Source: Bacteroidales bacterium (GTDB taxonomy: Bacteria > Bacteroidota > Bacteroidia > Bacteroidales > UBA932). From it: 64,000 nucleotides of DNA. The notes under the pieces were generated by a model. It did no database searches and had not been told where the DNA came from. It saw only the letters and a program-made list of their open reading frames with translations. The position numbers and the translations under genes are program-made. This document shows, piece by piece, positions 891-50,256 of this stretch (position 1 is its first letter; every line of letters begins with the position of its first letter). The stretch covers positions 1-64,000 of the forward strand of contig JAFQAT010000010.1 in assembly GCA_017399865.1 (NCBI GenBank), written 5' to 3'.

Positions 891-936
891 TTACAGAAAA
901 TCGCCTGCGGCATATGCCACAGGCGATTTTCTGTAA
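891..936. terminator. Bidirectional terminator, long perfect hairpin
   Basis: A 17-bp perfect inverted repeat (891-907 with 920-936) contains the core CGCCTG...CAGGCG, and a second palindrome GGCATATGCC fills the loop. A-rich and T-rich ends on both arms fit termination in both directions. It sits between the convergent MGMT-like gene and the GH5 gene. The same CGCCTG core recurs in hairpins at 5139-5164 and 30732-30765. Confidence 0.85.
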
Positions 937-30805: not shown

Positions 30806-32350
30806 ATGAAAAGATTCATCACATCGCTGGCGCTGTCATTCATGATGGTCTGCGCTTTTGCCCAGGGATACACAAACCCTGTCGTAACCGGATTCTGCCC
30901 CGATCCGAGCATCTGTCGGGCAGGCGATGATTACTATCTGGTGGCCAGCAGCTTCCAGTATTTTCCGGGTGTTCCGCTCTACCACAGCAAGGACCTCGTG
31001 AACTGGAAGCAGGTGGGACATGTGCTGACCCGCGACTCGCAGCTCCAGCTCGAGAATGCGAATTCGAGCCAGGGCATCTTCGCCCCTACCCTCCGCTACC
31101 ATGACGGCAAGTTCTATATGATCACGACCAACATCTCAAGCCTCGGCAATTTCATCGTCACGGCGGAAGACCCGCTCGGAGAGTGGTCGGACCCGATTCC
31201 GGTGAAGATGGGCGGCATAGACCCTTCCCTCTTCTGGGACGAGGACGGCAGCTGCTGGTACACCGGCTCGACCGGCACAAGCGTGATGATAAGCAGGATA
31301 AATCCGGACACAGGAGAGATTCTTTCGAAGCCGAAAGTGGTCTGGAACGGCATGGGAGGCCGATATCCTGAAGCACCGCATATCTACAAGAAGGACGGAT
31401 GGTACTATCTGATGATAGCCGAAGGCGGCACGGAATTCGCCCACAGCGAGACCATCGCCCGCAGCCGCAACATCGAAGGTCCGTACGATCCGGCACCACA
31501 CAACCCGATCATGACCCACTTCACTGCCGCTGCGCAGACCAGCCCTATCCAGGGCGTGGGACATGCCGACCTCGTACAGGCCCACGACGGCTCATGGTGG
31601 CTCGTGTGCCTGGCCTTCCGCGTCAACCACGGACTCATCCACCTTCTCGGCCGCGAGACCTTCCTCGCTCCTGTCCGCTGGGACAAGAACGCATGGCCGG
31701 TGGTCAACGGAAACGGCGAGATCGCGCTCAAGATGGACGTCCCTACCCTCCCTCTCAAGCCATTCGAACCAGCGCCTGCGCGCAATGAGTTCGACGAGCC
31801 TCTCGGACCTGAATGGTCATGGCTGCGCAATCCTGTAAAGGAACGCTACAGCATCGAGGGCGGCAGGCTGCGCATGTGGGGATCGGCTGAGGGCCTCAAC
31901 GAGAGAAGGGTGTCTCCGTCGTTCGTCGGTTTCCGCCAGAAGGAGTTCGATTTCCTGGCAGAGACATGCGTGCAGCTCGTCAACGCACGCTCGGGAGACA
32001 AGGCCGGAATGACCGTCTATATGGACTACAACGGACATTATGACGTATATGTCGAGAAGAAGGGAGGAAAGCTGGTGGTCGGAACGAACTATACCTTCGG
32101 TCCTGTTAACCATGTCGAGGAAATCCCTGTGAATGCTTCGAAGGTATGGCTCCGTCTGACAGGAAACCGCATGCAGTATCATCTCTGGTACTCTACCGAC
32201 GGCAAGAACTTCAAGGAAACCGGCGTAGCTGACGCGAGGTTCATCAGTACAGAAACTCTCGGCAACTTCACCGGCATCATGCTGGGCCTCTGGGCCCAGT
32301 CCCCTTCGCAGAAGGGATATGCCGATTTCGATTATTTCGAATACCGCTAA
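30806..32350 (+). CDS. GH43 glycosidase with C-terminal beta-sandwich
   Basis: A 514-residue secreted protein with a signal peptide (MMVCAFAQ). The five-bladed propeller of GH43 occupies about 22-310: base D33 in CPDPS, pKa-modulating D139 in GGIDPS, general acid E189 in PEAPH. A beta-sandwich of the kind found in XynB/GH43 xylosidases covers about 330-514. Such enzymes are beta-xylosidases or alpha-arabinofuranosidases. Its place behind the epimerase suggests it removes side residues from hemicellulose met together with mannan. The substrate is not determined by the sequence; it has no lipobox, so it is probably periplasmic. Confidence 0.85.
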   Translation: MKRFITSLALSFMMVCAFAQGYTNPVVTGFCPDPSICRAGDDYYLVASSFQYFPGVPLYHSKDLVNWKQVGHVLTRDSQLQLENANSSQGIFAPTLRYHDGKFYMITTNISSLGNFIVTAEDPLGEWSDPIPVKMGGIDPSLFWDEDGSCWYTGSTGTSVMISRINPDTGEILSKPKVVWNGMGGRYPEAPHIYKKDGWYYLMIAEGGTEFAHSETIARSRNIEGPYDPAPHNPIMTHFTAAAQTSPIQGVGHADLVQAHDGSWWLVCLAFRVNHGLIHLLGRETFLAPVRWDKNAWPVVNGNGEIALKMDVPTLPLKPFEPAPARNEFDEPLGPEWSWLRNPVKERYSIEGGRLRMWGSAEGLNERRVSPSFVGFRQKEFDFLAETCVQLVNARSGDKAGMTVYMDYNGHYDVYVEKKGGKLVVGTNYTFGPVNHVEEIPVNASKVWLRLTGNRMQYHLWYSTDGKNFKETGVADARFISTETLGNFTGIMLGLWAQSPSQKGYADFDYFEYR

Positions 32351-32449
32351 AAATCAGCGGCTCGTGATGGAGAGCGACATGCCACCCCCGGCTAGGGGGA
32401 TATCCTCGAAGAGGAAGGGGGTCGCCGTAATCACGAGCCGCTGATTTTT
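32349..32449. terminator. Convergent terminator with a structured repeat at its tip
   Basis: The outer stem is a perfect 20-bp inverted repeat (32349-32368 with 32430-32449) ending in a T-run, between the convergent GH43 and DUF4252 genes. Its 61-base loop is not random: it holds the repeat element described at 32374-32425. Confidence 0.85.
32374..32425. repeat. Structured palindromic repeat, copy A
   Basis: GCGAC/GTCGC closes the element (32374-32378 with 32421-32425). Inside, CCCCC-GGCTA-GGGGG (32384-32398) and TCCTC-GAA-GAGGA (32403-32415) form two small hairpins. Bases 32381-32400 (gccacccccggctaggggga) are identical to 38181-38200. The second hairpin differs between copies by paired changes while keeping the GAA loop. 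Confidence 0.8.
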
Positions 32450-32458
32450 TTGTGTGTT

Positions 32459-32959
32459 CTACATAGAAGAGGCGGCAGCTTTGGCGATCAGGGTTTCGAC
32501 CTCCTTACGGTCCATGGTACAGTCTATGCAGATGAACTGGACATCATTGCCGGAACGGCACAGGAAGACAAAATTTTCAATGGTCTTGTCATTTCCGACA
32601 GTGTATATGTTCACATTATCCCCGTCATCCTTTACCTCCATCAGCAGTTCATAGCGTCCTTTGCTGATCATTACCTTGACATCCTCGGCAAGGCTGCTTC
32701 CCTGCTGGGATCCGCTCATGTCCAGCATATAGAACCCGCTGAACGAACGGATCAGCGGCGCCAGATCCATGTTCTCCCCTTCCGCCACCTCGACGTTCAG
32801 CTCGGGAATCTTTCCTATGAGCTTGAACATTGCCGGTGAGATGTAGACTGCAGACACACCCTGCGAGTCAGAATACTTGTTGTAGATGTTTCTTCCTTCC
32901 TGTGCGTACGCTCCGACTGCCGCCAGGAGGGCAAATGCTATTAAAATTATCTTTTTCAT
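32459..32959 (-). CDS. DUF4252 secreted protein
   Basis: From ATG 32959 it has 166 residues with a cleavable signal peptide (GAYAQ). The rest is a compact alpha/beta domain of the DUF4252 family (YNKYSDSQGVSAVYIS, a central hydrophobic strand region, and C-terminal helix), for which I know no defined function. It closes the sigma-factor operon, 7 bases after the anti-sigma-like gene, and is paralogous to the protein at 33846-34364. The longer frame up to 32998 overlaps the preceding gene and is not chosen. Confidence 0.75.
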   Translation of the reverse strand: MKKIILIAFALLAAVGAYAQEGRNIYNKYSDSQGVSAVYISPAMFKLIGKIPELNVEVAEGENMDLAPLIRSFSGFYMLDMSGSQQGSSLAEDVKVMISKGRYELLMEVKDDGDNVNIYTVGNDKTIENFVFLCRSGNDVQFICIDCTMDRKEVETLIAKAAASSM

Positions 32960-32966
32960 ATTCCTG

Positions 32967-33365
32967 TTATTCTGAAAAGACCGAAGAGGTCCTGTCAATT
33001 ATTTCTTCTGTTTTTTCCGCCATGGCGAGGCCTTTATGAATTTCGCCCGACATTATTGCAAAGGCTTTTTCAAGTTCTGCATATGCAAGATACGGGTCTG
33101 TGAAGGTGTCTTCAGGCTCATCCTGTCGGCCTGACAGGCCCAGTCCGGCTCCGACAAGAAGAGCAGCTGCCGCCGCGGCAGAGAGAACTCTCACCATCCT
33201 GACACGGCCACCCTTACGGGACTCATCCTCCGTCAGCCGTTCCAGGACTTCCAGACCGTCCTCCAGACGGGATGCGAAAGCGTCCGGCACAGAGATGTTT
33301 TCGTCCATGGATGCAGCTTCCAGCTGCTCCAGAGACATCTTTTCTATATCCTTTGATGATTTCAT
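32967..33365 (-). CDS. Probable membrane anti-sigma factor
   Basis: A 132-residue protein with one transmembrane helix (about 60-78, Ala/Leu/Val-rich) flanked by charged segments. Its ATG overlaps the stop of the ECF sigma gene by four bases (ATGA), implying coupled translation. Small single-helix proteins placed this way usually bind and hold the sigma factor at the inner membrane. No zinc-binding or FecR-type motif is visible, so the role rests on position and topology. Confidence 0.65.
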   Translation of the reverse strand: MKSSKDIEKMSLEQLEAASMDENISVPDAFASRLEDGLEVLERLTEDESRKGGRVRMVRVLSAAAAAALLVGAGLGLSGRQDEPEDTFTDPYLAYAELEKAFAIMSGEIHKGLAMAEKTEEIIDRTSSVFSE

Positions 33366-33844
33366 ATCCTTAACTTTTGCCTGAGGGTTTTTCTTGCCGT
33401 GCTTACCAGGACCCTTACATGTACCTGTGAAAGGCCGGTCCGTCTTGATATTTCCTTGTATTCCAGTCCGTCCAGGACCATCAGTTTCATCACTTCCGCC
33501 TGCCTGTCGGGCAGCTTGTCCATCTCCTCCAGCACCTTGGTCAGAAGGTCCTTTGCTGCAAGGCTGCTTTCCGGAGGAGGATCATCGGCAGGAATCCCAA
33601 CATCCGGGAACTCATGCCTCCTTATCTCGCGACGCCGTATCCTGTCCAGACAGATGTTCTTCAGAAGGGCCATCCCATATGCCGCCGGATTCCTTACCTC
33701 ATCGAGTCCGCTGCGGCCGGTCCAGAGCTTGAGATACAGCTCCTGCACGGCATCCTCCGCATCCTGCTGCGACTCCAGCATATAGAAAGCGGCGCGGTAG
33801 AACCTCTCAGCATACGGCATCCATATGTCCCTGAACCCTGTCAT
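33362..33844 (-). CDS. ECF-type RNA polymerase sigma factor
   Basis: A 160-residue sigma-70 family protein. Region 2 includes DAEDAVQELYLKLW and region 4 includes LPDRQAEVMKLMVLDGLEYKEISRRTGLSQVHVRVLVSTARKTL in outline (helix-turn-helix). It lies one base from the upstream DUF4252 gene and overlaps the anti-sigma-like gene by four bases. The partner is not a FecR-like protein, so this is not the TonB-linked SigW type that governs many PULs; a link with the DUF4252 proteins is more likely. Confidence 0.9.
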   Translation of the reverse strand: MTGFRDIWMPYAERFYRAAFYMLESQQDAEDAVQELYLKLWTGRSGLDEVRNPAAYGMALLKNICLDRIRRREIRRHEFPDVGIPADDPPPESSLAAKDLLTKVLEEMDKLPDRQAEVMKLMVLDGLEYKEISRRTGLSQVHVRVLVSTARKTLRQKLRI

Positions 33845-33845
33845 C

Positions 33846-34364
33846 CTACATTTCCATTTCCACGATATCCGCTATCTTGTCTGCGCTGATGCTGCCGAAA
33901 AGGCATATCAGGGTACATTCTTCAGGGATGAACACTATCAGATCATCGATCCTTTCGCCATCCGACGCAGCTGTGCCGTAGACATTGACGGTCTCGCCGT
34001 CCTCCTTGACTTCAATGATCTTCTCCGCATGCTTCAGAATCCCGGCAGCCTTCCTGCTGAAAGAGTCCTTCCGGTCCTGCTCTGCCGCCATGTAATCCAC
34101 AACGATGATCTTCCTGAGTCCGTCAATAACCTCCAGAGCCATCCTGTCCTCCTCGTTTTCGGCGCTGGCCTTGGCTATCATCTTTACAAGTCCGAGACCA
34201 AGTCCGCCGACGGAGACCACATCAAAACCCTGGTAAAGATTATACTCCCTCACCAGGCTGGCCATATCGCCGGAATTGACCTTCCTGCCTGCGGCTTTTG
34301 ACTCCGGGGATCCTATCCCGGCCGCAAAAGCCGCAAGCAGCACTATTGCAATAAATCTTTTCAT
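33846..34364 (-). CDS. DUF4252 secreted protein
   Basis: From ATG 34364 the protein has about 172 residues with an N-terminal hydrophobic export segment. The domain has the same layout as the smaller paralogue at 32459-32959 (LIVF central strand, KVIVV-like segment, acidic C-terminus), both of the DUF4252 family of unknown function. It is the first gene of a four-gene operon DUF4252 - sigma - anti-sigma - DUF4252. A TAAATTTG box lies 80 bases upstream. Confidence 0.75.
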   Translation of the reverse strand: MKRFIAIVLLAAFAAGIGSPESKAAGRKVNSGDMASLVREYNLYQGFDVVSVGGLGLGLVKMIAKASAENEEDRMALEVIDGLRKIIVVDYMAAEQDRKDSFSRKAAGILKHAEKIIEVKEDGETVNVYGTAASDGERIDDLIVFIPEECTLICLFGSISADKIADIVEMEM

Positions 34365-34479
34365 GTCAGTTTTCATTAAATCCGTTTAACATTCTTTCGA
34401 GCGCTCACCATTAAAGACGCACCAGCTTGGATTTTGTTAACGACAAATTTAAAAAACTTTGACTGTTTTCTCTCTTCAA

Positions 34480-34503
34480 TGTCATGCTGAACGAAGTGAA
34501 GCA
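34480..34503. repeat. Short intergenic motif resembling a widespread Bacteroidota repeat
   Basis: The motif tgtcatgctgaacgaagtga plus agca resembles, from memory, an intergenic sequence common in Bacteroidota genomes. Only one copy is in this window, so its repeat nature here is not shown. Confidence 0.35.
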
Positions 34504-34539
34504 GTTTTTTTACACAGTTCTTAATATCCTTTCAGCAAA

Positions 34540-34653
34540 AACACCTGTGACAGTTCTGAGGTAATTACTGCTACAGGTGTTGCTATAATAATGGTATTTG
34601 TAGGTCTTTGAAGACACCTGTGACAGTTTCTAACGGTTTTCTGACACAGATGT
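34540..34653. repeat. Two tandem hairpin units beginning acacctgtgacagtt
   Basis: Copies start at 34541 and 34614 (73 bases apart). Each has a near 9-bp stem; the first is perfect, the second has one mismatch. They follow the 234-residue lipoprotein gene on the minus strand and may end its transcript. Confidence 0.6.
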
Positions 34654-34720
34654 TGAGCGAGCATCTAACTCTCCTTGCTCCGGTTCCTGATTCTTGGTAA
34701 GACATTCTTTGCCGAAGTCA

Positions 34721-35425
34721 TCAATCGAAGCCGGAATACATATTCCAGTAAATCGGCTCAGCATGAAATCCTGCAACTTCACAGAACCAGTTCGCTATTT
34801 CTACAGGATTATAAGGAGAATCAGGCATACACATGAAGCGTACAGTCTTTGGATATTCAGTCACATAGTTCAGCACAGCATTGAAATCTTCAGCATACTG
34901 AATAACTTTATTCAACATATCCTCCTGATGTTCATCATCCAGAACAACCGAAAATCCACCATCAGGAAAGAACTTACCCTCGAACTTACTTTCAGGATCA
35001 TAGAATTTAGATGCCGGTTCTTTGTGACGATCATAGATCTTACATGAATAGAAAACCTCCGGCAGATCAAGTATCTCTTTTGGTCCCTTGATCCATGCAA
35101 CCATATAATTACGCCACAACTCCGGAAGTTCGGTCACTGTATTCGAGATGCTTCCTGTATGTTCCTGAAGGTGGACATACCCGTTCGCATCGATATAATT
35201 CAAGACAGACTCAGCATCATCCGCCTTGAATGCTATCATGTACTCATCTTCGCATGGAGTAAGATACACCTTCCCATTGGAATCACTGGCATGGAAATAA
35301 TAAAAATCATCATGGAAAACATATTCCACCTCCGGATCCGGTTCTCCTGCAGGCTTGTCAGGATCCGCCTGTCCGCAGCCGACTGTCATCATTATCAGCA
35401 GAACGGGAAAAACTAACTTCTTCAT
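34721..35425 (-). CDS. Unknown lipoprotein
   Basis: A 234-residue lipoprotein (MMTVGC, C17) with an acidic linker and an alpha/beta domain rich in Tyr, Asp and Glu. I do not recognise the family with confidence. Segments such as YYFHASDSNGKVYL and the later ANWF region weakly resemble the N-terminal propeptide-like part of large secreted Bacteroidota proteins such as S8 peptidases, so this may be a shortened descendant. It stands alone, with hairpin repeats downstream and no close operon partner. Its codon use looks more AT-rich than that of neighbouring genes. Confidence 0.5.
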   Translation of the reverse strand: MKKLVFPVLLIMMTVGCGQADPDKPAGEPDPEVEYVFHDDFYYFHASDSNGKVYLTPCEDEYMIAFKADDAESVLNYIDANGYVHLQEHTGSISNTVTELPELWRNYMVAWIKGPKEILDLPEVFYSCKIYDRHKEPASKFYDPESKFEGKFFPDGGFSVVLDDEHQEDMLNKVIQYAEDFNAVLNYVTEYPKTVRFMCMPDSPYNPVEIANWFCEVAGFHAEPIYWNMYSGFD

Positions 35426-35573
35426 AGCATATTACATTTAAACCAACGGTTTTGCAATATAGTCATTTTTTTGATTATCAATGCTTTTGCCATTAATTCA
35501 GGGAAGCGGCCTATTAATAAGTTTAAAAGTTCACCGAAATCTAGGTTTCACTAGCAGGTCACTTCCCTTTCAA

Positions 35574-35617
35574 TATGACACCCCTCACGGACCCGCGGAT
35601 CTGTGAGGGTTGTCACA
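35574..35617. terminator. Terminator after the 233-residue secreted protein
   Basis: CCCTCACGGA (35582-35591) pairs with TCTGTGAGGG (35600-35609) with one wobble, extended by TGACA/TGTCA-like flanks. It lies 18 bases past the stop of the gene at 35635-36336 on the minus strand. Confidence 0.6.
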
Positions 35618-35634
35618 TATGTTGTTGAGTTACT

Positions 35635-36336
35635 TTACAGCAATGTAGTCGAGGTGATGTAGTCGAGGACCTTTACAAGGTCGTCAACGTCTGACCATTT
35701 GATCTTTTCTGCTTTCAGGAACTTTGAGAAGGCCTTCTTGTCGACGCCTTCGAGATCTGACACGCTCTTCTTGTTCGCCGGGATCAGATTGTTTCCGATC
35801 ACGATATACAGATCCGTCAGAACCGGAAGCCTCTCGCCGCCGCTCCTCATTCCAAGAAGATCCTTGTAGACATCAGTCATAAGGTAGCCGTTGTACTGGT
35901 TGAGGGCATTCTCGTTGTAGAGGTAAGACTTTGTAGTGGTGCTGGTCAGCGTCGAACTTCCGTATGCGCCGTCATCCTTGATGACAGACGAGAAGTTTGC
36001 CTTGGTCTCCTGCACGATGCAGCCGCCTTCCGCCTGTGCCATGATCTTCAGCATCTTGCCGGCCACAAAGCGGAACGAATCCTCACCGATGTTGACGCCG
36101 GTCACACCCCATGTGTCGACCTCCCTGATCTTGCCGCCCTTGGCGACATAATGCAAGGCGCTCAAGCTGAGATGGACATTGTACAGAGCCTTTTCAGGCT
36201 TCCTGTTGGTACGGATCAGTTCACCTTCCTTGAACTCAGGATAGAGATAAGGCCAGGTGGTCGTCGGTTCTTCATTCTGCGCAAATGCAGACATGGCCAG
36301 CAGCATGCCGACACAAAGGAAAAGCAGCTTCTTCAT
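35635..36336 (-). CDS. Unknown secreted protein downstream of aspS
   Basis: A 233-residue protein with a cleavable signal peptide (AMSAFAQ). The mature part shows mixed alpha/beta prediction, a Ser/Thr-rich segment (about 127-135) and a basic C-terminal helix region with AFSKFLKAEKIKW. I do not recognise the family. The gene starts 5 bases after the aspS stop on the same strand, so the two are probably co-transcribed, although no functional link is obvious. Confidence 0.6.
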   Translation of the reverse strand: MKKLLFLCVGMLLAMSAFAQNEEPTTTWPYLYPEFKEGELIRTNRKPEKALYNVHLSLSALHYVAKGGKIREVDTWGVTGVNIGEDSFRFVAGKMLKIMAQAEGGCIVQETKANFSSVIKDDGAYGSSTLTSTTTKSYLYNENALNQYNGYLMTDVYKDLLGMRSGGERLPVLTDLYIVIGNNLIPANKKSVSDLEGVDKKAFSKFLKAEKIKWSDVDDLVKVLDYITSTTLL

Positions 36337-36341
36337 GATAT

Positions 36342-38114
36342 TTACTCTTTACGTTCAGCCTTTGACTCGAGGAAAAGCTCATCCATCTGCTCCTGGTCGA
36401 TGTATGATGGAGAGTCGATCATCACGTCGCGGCCCTGGTTGTTCTTAGGGAATGCGATGTAGTCACGGATGGTCTCCTGACCTCCGAAGAGAGAGCACAC
36501 GCGGTCGAATCCGAATGCGAGTCCACCATGTGGCGGAGCACCGAACTTGAAGGCGTTGATGATGAATCCGAACTTGTATTCAGCGTCCTCCTTGCTGATG
36601 CCGAGGACTTCGAACATACGCTCCTGCATTGCCGCTTCATGGATACGGATCGATCCGCCGCCAAGCTCAGTGCCGTTGAGGACGAAGTCGTATGCATTTG
36701 CACATACCTTCTCGAGGTCTTCCTTCCTGTCGCTGTAGAAGAGTTCGAGATGCTCCGGCTTAGGTGCGGTGAACGGATGGTGCATAGCGTAGAAACGCTG
36801 GGTCTCGTCGTCCCACTCCACGAGAGGGAAATCAACGACCCAGAGAGGTGCGAAGTTGAACGGATCGCGGAGTCCGAGACGGTTACCCATCTCGATACGG
36901 AGCACTCCGAGCATGGTCTGGGTCTTTCTCTTTGCGCCGCAGAGGACGAGCATCATGTCGCCCTTCTTCGCGCCGAGGCGGTCTGCAACGGCCTGAAGCT
37001 GCTCTGGAGTATAGAACTTGTCGATCGAAGACTTGATCGTCCCGTCTTCATTGAGCTTGATGTATACAAGGCCTTTGGCGCCTACCTGAGGCCTCTTCAC
37101 CCACTCTGTGAGCTCGTCGATCTGCTTGCGGGTATATCCTGCAGTGCCTTCCACATTGATCGCACCGATATAGTCTACTCCGTCGAATACAGAGAATCCG
37201 TAGCCCTTCACGAGGTCTGTGATCTCATGGATCTTCATGTCGAAACGGATGTCCGGCTTGTCGCTTCCGTAGAAGTCCATGGCGTCGTACCAGCTCATGC
37301 GAGGGATACGCTCGGCGATCTCTACATTGAGGACGTTCTTGAAGAGGGTCCTCATCATGCCTTCGAATGTGTTCAGAACATCTTCCTGCTCCACGAACGA
37401 CATTTCGCAGTCGATCTGGGTGAATTCAGGCTGGCGGTCTGCGCGGAGGTCCTCGTCACGGAAGCAGCGCACGATCTGGAAGTAACGGTCGTAGCCGGCC
37501 ACCATCAGAAGCTGCTTGAAGGTCTGAGGAGACTGCGGGAGGGCGTAGAACTGGCCCGGGTTCATGCGTGAAGGAACCACGAAGTCACGCGCTCCTTCCG
37601 GAGTCGACTTGATCAGATATGGGGTCTCGATCTCAAGGAATCCCTGTGCATCGAGGTAGTTGCGGACTTCATGAGCCACCTGGTGGCGGAGCTTGAGGGC
37701 CCTCTGGAGAGGGTTTCTGCGGAGGTCGAGGTAACGGTATTTCGCACGGAGTTCCTCTCCGCCGTCGCTCTCGTCTTCGATTGTGAACGGAGGTGTATTA
37801 GCCTTGTTGAGGACCTTTATCTCGCTGAGGCTGATCTCGATGTCTCCTGTAGGCATCTTAGGGTTCTTGCTCTGGCGCTCGATGACCTGTCCTGTAACCT
37901 GGAGCACCCACTCGCGTCCGAGGCTTGATGCCGTGTCCTGGAGTTCCTGTGCAGCATGGGCGTCAACTACAAGCTGGGTGATGCCGTAGCGGTCGCGAAG
38001 GTCCACGAAGGTCATTCCTCCGAGCTTTCTGCTCTTCTGTACCCATCCGGCCAGGGTCACTGTCTGGCCTGCATTTTCGATGCGGAGTTCTCCGCAGGTG
38101 TGTGTTCTGTACAT
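36342..38114 (-). CDS. aspS: Aspartate-tRNA ligase
   Basis: A 590-residue bacterial-type aspartyl-tRNA synthetase. It charges tRNA-Asp in the cytoplasm. Order of domains: OB-fold anticodon-binding domain (about 1-110; [10 protein letters not shown]), class II catalytic core with [25 protein letters not shown] (motif 2) and GFDR (motif 3), and the bacterial GAD insertion between. I chose ATG 38114 because family members begin MYRTH; the longer frame to 38237 would translate through a terminator and repeat element. It is followed closely by an unknown secreted protein. Confidence 0.96.
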
Positions 38115-38145
38115 ATGTGTCTGGTATTTATTATTCCTGTCTGTC

Positions 38146-38251
38146 CTGTCGGACTGGCTGATGGATGGAATTGACATTTTGCCACCCCCGGCTAGGGGGA
38201 GGGGCCCACGAAGTGGGAGGGGGTCAATGGAATCCACAGCCAGTCCGACAG
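38146..38251. terminator. Inverted repeat with structured repeat at its tip, upstream of aspS
   Basis: CTGTCGGACTGGCT (38146-38159) pairs perfectly with AGCCAGTCCGACAG (38238-38251); ATTGAC/GTCAAT extends the stem inward. The tip carries repeat copy B. It lies in the divergent aspS/rsmA gap, so it does not follow a stop codon; a structural role is as likely as termination. Confidence 0.7.
38170..38227. repeat. Structured palindromic repeat, copy B
   Basis: Same layout as copy A: a closing stem (ATTGAC/GTCAAT), the identical 20-base block at 38181-38200 with CCCCC-GGCTA-GGGGG, then CCCAC-GAA-GTGGG (38205-38217), then GGGGGTC. Compared with copy A the second stem changes on both sides and keeps its pairing and its GAA loop. 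Confidence 0.8.
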
Positions 38252-38300
38252 ATTCCTGTTAAAAACTGACAAAAATAATATTTTTTAACGGTTAAAAGCA

Positions 38301-38450
38301 CAAAAACATACCCCTTTTGTTCTTTTATCCTGATATTTAGGCTTCTAAAGGACAAAACAAGGCCTTTTTGTACTTTTGACTGGATATTTTGAGGTCTAAA
38401 GAACAAATCGGGCCATTTTTGTGCTTTTGAAAGGGAATTCAGCGGAAAGC
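38301..38450. repeat. Three-copy tandem repeat of 51-52 bp upstream of rsmA
   Basis: Units start near 38301, 38353 and 38404. Each contains a CAAAA-type start, a CC-TTTTGT-CTTTT core and, in the first two, GATATTT and TCTAAAG. The minus-strand reading keeps a 17-residue period with KxQK, which may be chance or a degenerate peptide. The third unit runs into the rsmA promoter. Confidence 0.7.
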
Positions 38451-38481: not shown

Positions 38482-39315
38482 ATGGAAGTTAGAGCGAAGA
38501 AGGCCCTTGGCCAGCATTTCTTGACAGACCTGTCGATTGCGCAGCGTATCGCCGATGCGCTCATAGTACCTTGTCCGGGATCGGAAAAGCAGCACGATGC
38601 GTCAAAACCTATGCCTGCGCTTGAAGTCGGACCGGGAATGGGCGTGCTGACACAGTATGTGCTCCAGAGACCGGAGGTGGATCTGCGCATGGTAGAGATT
38701 GATACTGAATCTGTTGACTACCTTCTCGTGCATTTCCCGCAGGTAAACGGAAAGCTTATCGAGGCGGACTTCCTGAAGCTGAAGCTTGAGAGGTTCTTCC
38801 CGGGAGAATTCTGCGTAATCGGAAACTTCCCGTACAACATCTCTTCGCAGATATTCTTCAAGATCCTTGACTACAAGGAGCAGGTTCCGCAGGTTGTCTG
38901 CATGATCCAGAAGGAAGTGGCAGAACGTATTGCAGAAAAGCCCGGAACCAAGACATATGGAATACTTTCCGTCCTGCTCCAGGCATGGTATGACATAGAA
39001 TATCTCTTTACCGTAGGCGAAGGCGCATTCAACCCTCCTCCGAAGGTCAAGTCGGCTGTGATCAGACTTGTGCGCAACCAGCGTACCGAACTTGGCTGCG
39101 ACGAGGCCCTTTTCAAGACCGTGGTGAAGACCGGATTCAACCAGCGCCGCAAGACCCTGCGCAACTCGCTGAAACCCCTTGTCCGGGCAAAGGCGGACCG
39201 CGAAGGATGGTCAGAGGAGCAGCTAGCCGAATTCACATCCGACCCCGTCTTCGACCTTCGTCCCGAGCGCCTCAGCGTCGAGGACTTCATCTCGCTTACA
39301 CTGAAACTGGCTTAG
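38482..39315 (+). CDS. rsmA: 16S rRNA dimethyladenosine transferase
   Basis: A 277-residue KsgA/RsmA enzyme that dimethylates two adjacent adenines near the 3' end of 16S rRNA during small-subunit maturation. Seen: KKALGQHFL at the N-terminus, SAM-binding [10 protein letters not shown], catalytic NFPYNIS, and the C-terminal helical domain with [11 protein letters not shown] small insert (about residues 33-44) carries KQHDASKP. Divergent from aspS. Its stop overlaps the stop of the convergent GH18 gene by a few bases. Confidence 0.96.
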
Positions 39316-44938: not shown

Positions 44939-45027
44939 AGCATTAGCGGTGTCATTTCATGGCACAGGGTGCAATTTAATCACCTGAAAGTCGGGATTTG
45001 TTCACATAAAGATCCGATGCCGCAATA

Positions 45028-45047
45028 TGGAGAGTGACATGCCACCC
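45028..45047. repeat. Partial copy of the structured palindromic repeat
   Basis: tggagagtgacatgccaccc matches 32368-32387 of copy A with one mismatch, then diverges. The hairpin part is missing, so this looks like a truncated copy. It lies between the esterase and GH2 genes. Confidence 0.6.
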
Positions 45048-50217: not shown

Positions 50218-50256
50218 TCAAGGCCACCTGCTCAGCAACTGAACAGGTGGCCTTGA
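50218..50256. terminator. Bidirectional terminator between GH130 copy 2 and GH18-ThuA
   Basis: TCAAGGCCACCTG (50218-50230) and CAGGTGGCCTTGA (50244-50256) form a perfect 13-bp stem with a 13-base loop, between the ends of two convergent genes. Confidence 0.85.

What the first reader, a model, noticed from the sequence alone, without database searches (positions are those of the whole stretch)
32349..38251. Structured palindromic repeat carried at the tip of terminator hairpins, with covarying stem
Copies at 32374-32425 and 38170-38227 share a 20-base identical block and then a second hairpin whose stem differs on both sides (TCCTC/GAGGA versus CCCAC/GTGGG) but keeps a GAA loop. Both sit exactly inside long unrelated inverted repeats. 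A third partial copy is at 45028-45047. Paired changes point to selection on structure. The location suggests insertion into terminator loops, as with REP/MITE-like elements, or a functional RNA tip. The element has no gene of its own here.
Basis: seen in the sequence. Interest (0 to 1): 0.75.

Follow-up and report, generated by a model that had tools for sequence, protein, structure and literature searches.

The report
Mobile DNA hairpin tip in terminators
A short folded DNA sequence is scattered through genomes of gut bacteria that appear to belong to or near Cryptobacteroides, sitting at the tip of long hairpins, often at gene ends and sometimes inside genes; it looks like a small mobile element whose shape is kept more strictly than the sequence of its arms.

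Summary
Observation confirmed: two full copies (32349-32449, 38146-38251) and a truncated third (45024-45047). The genome holds 31 copies by pattern, 36 by covariance model; relatives of one genus carry more, and 160 copies were parsed. Each has a conserved ~55-nt tip (closing stem, core, second hairpin) inside arms of roughly 15-30 bp that mostly differ from copy to copy yet stay complementary, with paired changes between orthologs. At 7 of 31 orthologous sites the tip lies in opposite orientations. Arm homogenisation plus spacer inversion is the published signature of replication template switching. The constrained strand is tip(+): G.T mismatches exceed A.C 119:35, in every gene orientation, and second-hairpin loops are mostly kinds very stable in DNA. 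The terminator idea holds at copy 1, where a close relative has nearly the same stem without the tip. It fails at copy 2, and some copies lie inside open frames of conserved genes. Best reading: a non-autonomous REP/RPE-like mobile palindrome acting as single-stranded DNA. No mobilising enzyme was found: 49 Y1-transposase loci (19 distinct ones in tip-bearing genomes) lack the tip. New variant of a known kind.

The parts
32349..32368 (+). copy 1, left arm (20 bp); its first bases overlap the stop codon of the GH43 gene
   Evidence: inverted repeat; folding
32369..32429 (+). copy 1, tip: GGAGA / CGTA internal loop, closing stem GCGAC 32374-32378 with GTCGC 32421-32425, core GCCACCCCCGGCTAGGGGG 32381-32399, second hairpin 32403-32415
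   Evidence: model R1 hit (this copy was in the model, so it matches by construction)
32430..32449 (+). copy 1, right arm; ends in a T run
   Evidence: orthologous stem without tip in L285
38146..38166 (+). copy 2, left arm with one bulged base (38146-38160 and 38162-38166)
38167..38231 (+). copy 2, tip: GGA/GGA internal loop, closing stem ATTGAC 38170-38175 with GTCAAT 38223-38228, core 38181-38199, second hairpin CCCAC-GAA-GTGGG 38205-38217
   Evidence: R1 hit (also in the model)
38232..38251 (+). copy 2, right arm (38232-38236 and 38237-38251)
45024..45047 (+). truncated third copy: inner left arm, GGA, closing-stem half and first part of the core; the right half is missing
   Evidence: exact 24-base match to the left half of copy L002; no R1 hit
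30806..32350 (+). GH43 glycosyl hydrolase gene, converging on copy 1
   Evidence: PF04616, PF17851
32459..32998 (-). DUF4252 gene, converging on copy 1
   Evidence: PF14060
36342..38114 (-). aspartyl-tRNA synthetase type gene, starts beside copy 2
   Evidence: PF00152, PF01336, PF02938; the exact amino acid specificity is recalled from the domain set
38482..39315 (+). rRNA adenine dimethylase (KsgA type), diverging from copy 2
   Evidence: PF00398

Best explanation
A non-autonomous mobile palindromic element whose active form is a folded single strand of DNA, the tip(+) strand. Shown: many dispersed copies; presence or absence at orthologous sites; paired changes in arms, closing stem and second hairpin; strand-specific tolerance of G.T; DNA-type loops; opposite orientations of the tip at some orthologous sites; residence in terminator hairpins at some gene ends and in open frames of genes. 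Inferred: (1) the tip enters loops of hairpins, long-stemmed intrinsic terminators being a frequent home, or moves together with its arms; (2) afterwards the arms drift in sequence but are kept complementary, and are flipped, by template switching during replication; (3) an unidentified enzyme acting on single-stranded DNA, possibly one of the many RAYT-like Y1 (HUH) transposases of this genus, moves it. At gene ends the composite hairpin probably still terminates transcription.
For: Copy number: 31 by pattern, 36 by model. Among 101 genomes, hits only in the same genus (19 genomes, a floor because only 43 candidates per genome were scored). Copy 1: L285 has the stem AAAATCATCGGCTCG/CGAGCCGATGATTTT without tip, one paired T-A to G-C difference. 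Copy 2: L198 is empty with near-identical flanks. Similar arms at different sites of one genome: nine copies on nine contigs of MAG RUG14513, two of them incomplete, and L002, L008, L020 here. Arms: 154 of 160 copies pair well against 37 of 480 with right arms swapped. Over 47 usable of 52 ortholog pairs: 140 double Watson-Crick against 62 single changes; pairs overlap within sites. Closing stem 98.5% paired, 5 of 6 pairs changed on both sides. Core triplets GCC/GGC 157, CGC/GCG 2, CCC/GGG 1 by an open pattern. Opposite orientation: 10 of 62 ortholog pairs, 7 of 31 sites; by eye the arms are related at four of the seven (aspS, metH, L123/L141, L058/L079). G.T 119 against A.C 35 on tip(+), p 7e-12; one copy per site 83:26, same direction in codirectional-same 12:3, codirectional-opposite 56:15, convergent 22:8 and in-gene 12:4. 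Loops: 49 of 86 triloops cGNAg, 0 with the reverse-complement form; 30 of 45 tetraloops cGNNAg or cGNABg; control 0 of 18 and 4 of 50 strand readings. Template switching makes arm homogenisation plus spacer inversion (PMC8604942, passages).
Against: No transposition was seen and no enzyme is linked: none of 49 Y1 loci holds the tip (two hits at E 0.26). The one Y1 gene of G000 examined (of 7 matches) is flanked by a different repeat. No target duplication was identified. CCCCC/GGGGG shows no both-side change, and two hits outside the open pattern are not complementary at the triplets: ACC/GGC (L030) and TCC/GGC (G021:C34). A knot of GCC/GGC and CCCCC/GGGGG would be easier to build in RNA (inference). 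At three of seven sites opposite orientation could be separate insertions. Orientation bias relative to genes (41:11 per site) is unexplained. Loci were collected by a near-exact core, so core conservation is no evidence. At copy 1 loss in G021 cannot be told from gain in G000.
Confidence: 0.6

Rival explanations
1. The tip is a functional RNA: a protein- or ligand-binding cap on mRNA 3' hairpins that stabilises messages or tunes termination.
For: Paired changes and core-triplet changes that stay complementary, compatible with a small pseudoknot; convergent against divergent sites 42:1; REPs were proposed to act as RNA (PMC3733652, abstract and passages).
Against: The strand that tolerates G.T and carries the favoured loops is mostly antisense to the flanking gene (41:11 per site) and behaves the same in every orientation. 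GNRA tetraloops (11) are hardly preferred over GNYA (9). Copies lie in coding sequence. No Rfam match in the window at gathering threshold. Folding energy does not separate RNA from DNA (152 and 151 of 160 favour tip(+)).
Confidence: 0.2
2. A classical REP mobilised by a cognate RAYT, the G(G/T)A-A/G beside the closing stem being its tag. This is a special case of the best explanation, so the odds overlap.
For: G[GT]A lies directly outside the closing stem on both sides in 76 and on at least one side in 113 of 160 copies. Y1 matches occur in 76 of 101 genomes. The three closest relatives of the examined G000 Y1 protein (49-57% identity) are in G039, G056 and G024, all tip-bearing.
Against: The tag is internal and mirrored, not a terminal unpaired tetranucleotide. 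No tip at 49 Y1 loci, of which 19 distinct ones lie in 12 tip-bearing genomes; the rest of the Y1 genes were not read. The association may only reflect kinship (p 0.001 and 0.02, uncorrected).
Confidence: 0.25
3. The tip only ever inserts into pre-existing terminator loops; all arms are terminator stems.
For: Copy 1 and L285. At the L022 and L007 sites, syntenic on both sides, G021 has plain hairpins with about 20 and 12 bp stems. Plain hairpins of this genus can be very long (18 and 21 bp in the window; about 30 bp in L361).
Against: Copy 2 and several other empty sites show no hairpin. In-gene copies. Similar arms at different sites of one genome. At L022 and L007 the stems of the two genomes are not clearly homologous; at L026 only the left gene is shared; at L005 two relatives show no comparable hairpin.
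Confidence: 0.1
4. Fixed host signal: a DNA structure kept by the host, for example a gyrase, nucleoid-protein or replication site, spread once long ago.
For: 31 sites are occupied in two or more loci with pairing kept; preference for gene ends.
Against: Patchy occupancy between relatives, positions inside conserved genes, and no hit in most of the genus genomes examined (12 of 61 by pattern, 19 of 61 by model).
Confidence: 0.07

Closest known systems
REP elements, GTAG and CGTC superfamilies (PMC3733652; abstract, section 7 and passages seen)
   Same: Short dispersed palindromes, mostly between codirectional or convergent genes, downstream of ORFs; some inside genes, tRNA pseudouridine synthase genes among them; G.T pairs and alternative stems noted; a few families lie inside longer palindromes.
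   Different: Here the conserved part is the tip of a hairpin whose long arms mostly differ between copies; that paper's enclosing palindromes fit a family consensus. No terminal GTAG or CGTC tag and no linked RAYT was found.
Rickettsia palindromic elements (RPE)
   Same: Palindromes that insert in-frame into protein genes and also lie between genes.
   Different: Tip plus mostly unrelated arms, opposite tip orientations, Bacteroidales host. RPE details are recalled, apart from the CGTC tag stated in PMC3733652.
Template-switch inverted repeats (PMC8604942, PMC8794818; passages seen)
   Same: Arm homogenisation and spacer inversion at short inverted repeats, also in coding DNA.
   Different: Those are mutations at single loci of yeast genes and of RNA genes; here the process would act on a dispersed element with a conserved spacer of roughly 60-90 nt.
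Intrinsic transcription terminators
   Same: Stem plus T run at some gene ends; same stem without tip in a relative at copy 1.
   Different: Carries a conserved insert of about 60-70 nt in the loop; most copies have no T run.
Integron attC sites and IS200/IS605 ends (recalled)
   Same: Recognised as a folded single DNA strand.
   Different: No integrase or transposase link shown; the conserved part is at the tip, not the base.

Membership tests
REP (GTAG/CGTC superfamilies) | terminal unpaired GTAG or CGTC tetranucleotide | tested here: not met
   G(G/T)A lies inside the hairpin beside the closing stem, on both sides in 76 of 160 copies; no CGTC at the ends in the 56 aligned copies by eye
REP (GTAG/CGTC superfamilies) | RAYT gene flanked by the repeat | tested here: not met
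   49 Y1 loci without a convincing model hit (two at E 0.26); 19 distinct ones in 12 tip-bearing genomes; not every Y1 gene was read
REP (GTAG/CGTC superfamilies) | dispersed, mostly between convergent or codirectional genes | tested here: met
   per site: 42 convergent, 44 codirectional, 1 divergent, 8 in genes, 20 at locus edges (crude gene finder)
REP (GTAG/CGTC superfamilies) | 20-40 bp length | tested here: not met
   tip lengths mostly 53-65 nt, whole hairpin about 90-110 nt
Rickettsia palindromic elements | in-frame insertion in protein genes | tested here: met
   length differences to empty genes 99, 117, 102, 102 and 84, 114, 69 nt, all multiples of 3 (from coordinates); open frames through the element; Pfam domains in nine hosts
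Rickettsia palindromic elements | sequence homology to an RPE family | not tested
   no RPE sequence was fetched
MITE | terminal inverted repeats shared between copies and target-site duplication | tested here: not met
   arms differ between most copies; no duplication seen at copy 2 against L198 by eye
Intrinsic terminator | stem followed by a T run at a gene end | tested here: inconclusive
   met at copy 1 and with A and T runs in 18 of 47 convergent copies; not met at copy 2; termination not measured
Template-switch inverted repeat | arm homogenisation and spacer inversion between relatives | tested here: met
   140 double against 62 single changes; opposite orientation at 7 of 31 sites, arms related by eye at four
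Known structured RNA | match to an Rfam family | tested here: not met
   0 matches at gathering threshold in the window

The most novel reading that the evidence does not exclude
A class of hairpin-loop parasites: a conserved nucleic-acid cap that is selected strand-specifically as folded single-stranded DNA, borrows host terminator stems as its arms, spreads through the loops of hairpins genome-wide, and relies on replication template switching to keep those arms perfect and to flip itself; several sister caps with other sequences do the same in this genus, moved by an undescribed single-strand recombinase.
Probability: 0.25. Interest if true: 0.82.

Novelty: new variant of a known kind. Interest (0 to 1): 0.57.

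Why it matters
Whether a conserved hairpin in a genome is kept as RNA or as DNA is usually assumed, not tested. Here a strand-specific mismatch bias, independent of transcription direction, and DNA-type loops make that question answerable from sequence. The system also gives many natural replicates in which template switching may keep and invert a long palindrome in bacteria, and shows palindromes that sit in open frames of conserved enzymes. If the mover is found it would link REP-like repeats of Bacteroidales to an enzyme.

Tried and rejected
Rfam scan of the window: no match at gathering threshold. Viral contigs: 0 exact matches. Idea that arms are always pre-existing terminators: rejected as a rule, kept for copy 1. 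Idea that arms are made from target DNA by the insertion: not supported where it could be read (L024 against L063 and L109), but empty sites are mostly 70-90% identical, so weak. RAYT next to the tip: not found. Correlation of Y1 genes with the tip: weak and confounded by kinship. GC skew as a proxy for replication direction: convergent copies show none (mean 0.013, 18 of 32 positive), the other classes are confounded by gene direction, so no conclusion. The thought that the sense mRNA strand is the selected one (from gene orientation) was dropped after the G.T test. A UNCG-type RNA loop was considered and dropped: 0 UNCG and 0 cTNCg loops. At site L005 two relatives showed no comparable hairpin beside the shared gene end; at site L001 G021 has the tip with a longer inner part.

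Limits. Gene contexts come from a crude ORF finder of my own; 27 of 166 copies were at locus edges. Of 166 hits, 160 were parsed: 5 could not be parsed and 1 lay too near a contig end; two of the unparsed (L145, L156, genome G028) are probably chance hits, and L156 is one of the 19 in-gene opposite hits. Ortholog statistics used 47 of 52 pairs, pairs overlap within sites, and only positions in the pairing path of both copies were counted. Loci were found by a near-exact core, so nothing is claimed from core conservation. Some pairs listed as non-orthologous are missed orthologs (L092/L159 are both in the MurB-type gene), so only copies within one genome are used as evidence that arms go with the tip; the RUG14513 copies also share pieces beyond the arms and may be parts of larger repeats. 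In-gene host names rest on Pfam for nine proteins; ArgC, MetH, NadD and HemN as gene names are recalled. The cGNABg class of stable DNA loops and the GGA/GGA motif are recalled (PMC8373063 seen in a search listing only); GNA and GNNA are from passages of PMC4686876. Literature searches; only asked for Cryptobacteroides, and none of its 15 listed papers (of 1,408) held that word; most subscription papers are not in the library, so absence from print is not claimed.


Full report
What is there. The two copies in the window are as described: an identical 20-base block at 32381-32400 and 38181-38200, a second hairpin with a paired sequence change and a GAA loop, each inside a long unrelated inverted repeat. 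In a scan for arm score 15 or more and spacer 25-170 these are the only two in 64 kb; five block shuffles gave 0,1,0,0,0. The third partial copy (45024-45047) is the left half of such a unit: 24 bases identical to the left half of another copy in the same genome, none expected by chance. A covariance model built from 56 copies, the two window copies among them, finds those two and nothing else in the window.

How common. The window's genome, a 2.19 Mb MAG of 78% completeness, has 31 pattern hits at up to 3 mismatches and none for the reversed pattern, and 36 model hits. Of 101 genomes (own, 60 of the genus, 40 of the order), 12 had pattern hits at up to 2 mismatches and 19 had model hits at E 0.001, all in the genus; the model search scored at most 43 candidates a genome, so it is a floor, and several of the 19 are single weak hits. 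Viral contigs: no exact match.

Anatomy. In 160 parsed copies (of 166 hits) the consensus order is: variable arm, G(G/T)A, closing stem of about 6 bp, AT(TTT), GCC-A-CCCCC-GGC-TA-GGGGG, second hairpin, GGGGG, closing stem, G(G/T)A, variable arm. G(G/T)A directly outside the stem is on both sides in 76 copies, on one side in 37, on neither in 47. In a 56-copy alignment the closing stem is 98.5% paired with both-side changes in 5 of 6 pairs; the 13 inner arm pairs all change on both sides but only 68.3% of their cells are standard pairs in that fixed register; CCCCC/GGGGG is 98.6% paired with no both-side change and GCC/GGC does not vary there. With an open pattern over all loci the triplets are GCC/GGC 157, CGC/GCG 2, CCC/GGG 1, all complementary; outside that pattern ACC/GGC (L030) and TCC/GGC (G021:C34) are not. 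GCC/GGC and CCCCC/GGGGG together would make a small knot; whether both form is not known. Arms pair in 154 of 160 copies, against 37 of 480 when right arms are swapped between copies.

Where it sits. By a crude gene finder, per orthologous site: 42 between convergent genes, 34 between codirectional genes antisense to tip(+), 10 codirectional in the other sense, 1 divergent, 8 inside genes (7 antisense), 20 at locus edges. Against species without the insert the length differences are 99, 117, 102 and 102 nt in one gene and 84, 114 and 69 nt in another, all multiples of three, and the frames through the element are open. Pfam places nine in-gene hosts as semialdehyde dehydrogenase (ArgC type), homocysteine methyltransferase (two), SufBD, MurB, TruB, PrmC, cytidylyltransferase and radical SAM proteins.

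Empty sites. At copy 1 the close relative G021 carries after the same DUF4252 gene the stem AAAATCATCGGCTCG/CGAGCCGATGATTTT with a minimal loop, followed by what looks by eye like the same GH43 gene end; the window has AAAATCAGCGGCTCG/CGAGCCGCTGATTTT with the tip inside: the same terminator apart from one paired change. Of 30 loci read there, 3 including the window's have the tip. At two more convergent sites, syntenic on both sides (L022, L007), G021 has plain hairpins with stems of about 20 and 12 bp, not clearly related to the window genome's; at L026 only the left gene is shared and a 10 bp hairpin follows it; at L005 two relatives show no comparable hairpin; at L001 G021 has the tip. Plain hairpins with 21 and 18 bp stems lie between probably convergent genes in the window too. 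At copy 2, L198 is empty and has no hairpin: TTATTATTCTTGTTCAAAAGATTCCTATTAAAAACTG. Of 30 loci at that site 5 have a recognisable core, in both orientations, two of them with the CGC/GCG form; a sixth, L202, looks like a variant by eye. So tip and arms are separable at copy 1, and come or go together at copy 2.

Do arms travel? Arms of non-orthologous copies are mostly unrelated, but some share them far beyond a reversed-sequence control (up to 19 of 20 bases on the poorer side against at most 11). Some of these pairs are missed orthologs, so the evidence is within genomes: nine copies on nine contigs of MAG RUG14513 have closely similar arms and tip, one cut by the contig end and one without its right arm, and L002, L008 and L020 of the window's genome share the CCGGTGTC-type arm.

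What keeps the arms paired. Over 47 usable of 52 ortholog pairs the aligned arm positions show 419 unchanged, 140 double Watson-Crick changes, 62 single changes and 30 others; in pairs with 84% or more mean flank identity 138, 21, 7 and 4. Pairs overlap within sites and are not independent. Ten of 62 ortholog pairs, at 7 of 31 sites, have the tip in opposite orientation relative to the flanks. By eye the arms are related at four of the seven (aspS, metH, L123/L141, L058/L079); in L123/L141 tip and inner arms are identical and one flank is 98%, the other 81% identical. At the other three, separate insertions are not excluded. Arm homogenisation together with spacer inversion is described as the effect of polymerase template switching between inverted repeats (PMC8604942, abstract and passages; PMC8794818, passages). 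That would explain perfect but ever-changing arms without selection at every site.

Which strand, DNA or RNA. Template switching alone should leave equal numbers of G.T and A.C mismatches (inference). With scoring that treats them alike there are 119 G.T and 35 A.C on tip(+); with one copy per site 83 and 26; and the direction is the same for copies antisense to genes (56:15), in sense (12:3), between convergent genes (22:8), at edges (15:5) and in genes antisense (12:4, p 0.08). So tip(+) seems to be the constrained strand whatever the transcription. Of 145 distinct tips the second hairpin has cGNAg loops in 49 of 86 triloops and none of the complementary kind, cGNNAg or cGNABg in 30 of 45 tetraloops (GNRA 11, GNYA 9), and longer loops in 14; ordinary hairpins of these loci with 11 or more pairs, read on both strands, have 0 of 18 and 4 of 50. 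GNA and GNNA loops closed by G-C pairs make extraordinarily stable DNA mini-hairpins (PMC4686876, passages). The mirrored GGA/GGA loop resembles a DNA motif recalled from centromeric TGGAA repeats. Tip(+) folds more stably than tip(-) in 151 of 160 copies with DNA and 152 of 160 with RNA parameters, so energy does not separate DNA from RNA. I take DNA as the more likely form (0.55); a knot would speak for RNA.

What moves it. The genus is rich in diverse Y1 (IS200-like) proteins of about 300 aa: 46 of the 61 genus genomes have a Pfam Y1 match (76 of all 101), and up to 12 matches per genome to one of them. None of 49 loci around such genes (47 places, 19 of them in 12 tip-bearing genomes) carries the tip; two hits at E 0.26 are at chance level. 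The one Y1 gene examined in this genome, of 7 matches, is followed by a different palindromic repeat that also lies about 1.3 kb upstream of it. The closest relatives of that protein are in three tip-bearing genomes, which may be kinship. The mover is unknown.

Against known kinds. REPs share the placement and occasional presence in genes, and a few REP families lie in longer palindromes that fit a consensus (PMC3733652, section 7 and passages); but the tag, size and RAYT link that define them were not met here. RPEs share the in-frame habit. I therefore file it as a new variant among small mobile palindromes, not as a member of either family.

Noticed in passing
L063 4079-4196; L113 3941-4048; L121 5251-5358; L003 1260-1371; also L001 2056-2198 and L137 5426-5580: Other long-armed hairpins with different but related-looking tips (CGTGCTACCCCCCTGGCCGCAGGGGGAGGGGCCC... 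and two more kinds), suggesting a superfamily of such caps.
   Followed up: partly
L052 minus-strand copy at offset 6580, against L113 3941-4048: In L052 a copy of the studied element starts inside what is, in L113, the tip of a sister element.
   Followed up: no
genomes of the window's genus: Y1 (IS200-like) proteins of about 300 aa give up to 12 matches per genome to one query, mostly at 25-35% identity.
   Followed up: partly
L174 516-612 and directly after the stop of the Y1 gene in L254: A palindromic repeat with ACGGGTATTTTTG arms lies on both sides of one Y1 transposase gene of this genome, like a TIR-associated transposase.
   Followed up: no
L106 1403-1462 and L087 2727-2769: At sites where relatives carry the studied element, these genomes have other REP-like hairpins (GAGCGAAGTCGAG and CCTGAGGAGCCCGAAGGG types).
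   Followed up: no
window 38290-38435; similar in L159 826-964: AT-rich imperfect repeats (AAAAGCACAAAA...TTTTTGT) upstream of the KsgA-type gene.
   Followed up: no
window 891-936 and 50218-50256: Two plain hairpins with 21 and 18 bp stems between probably convergent genes, likely very long-stemmed terminators; L361 has one of about 30 bp.
   Followed up: partly
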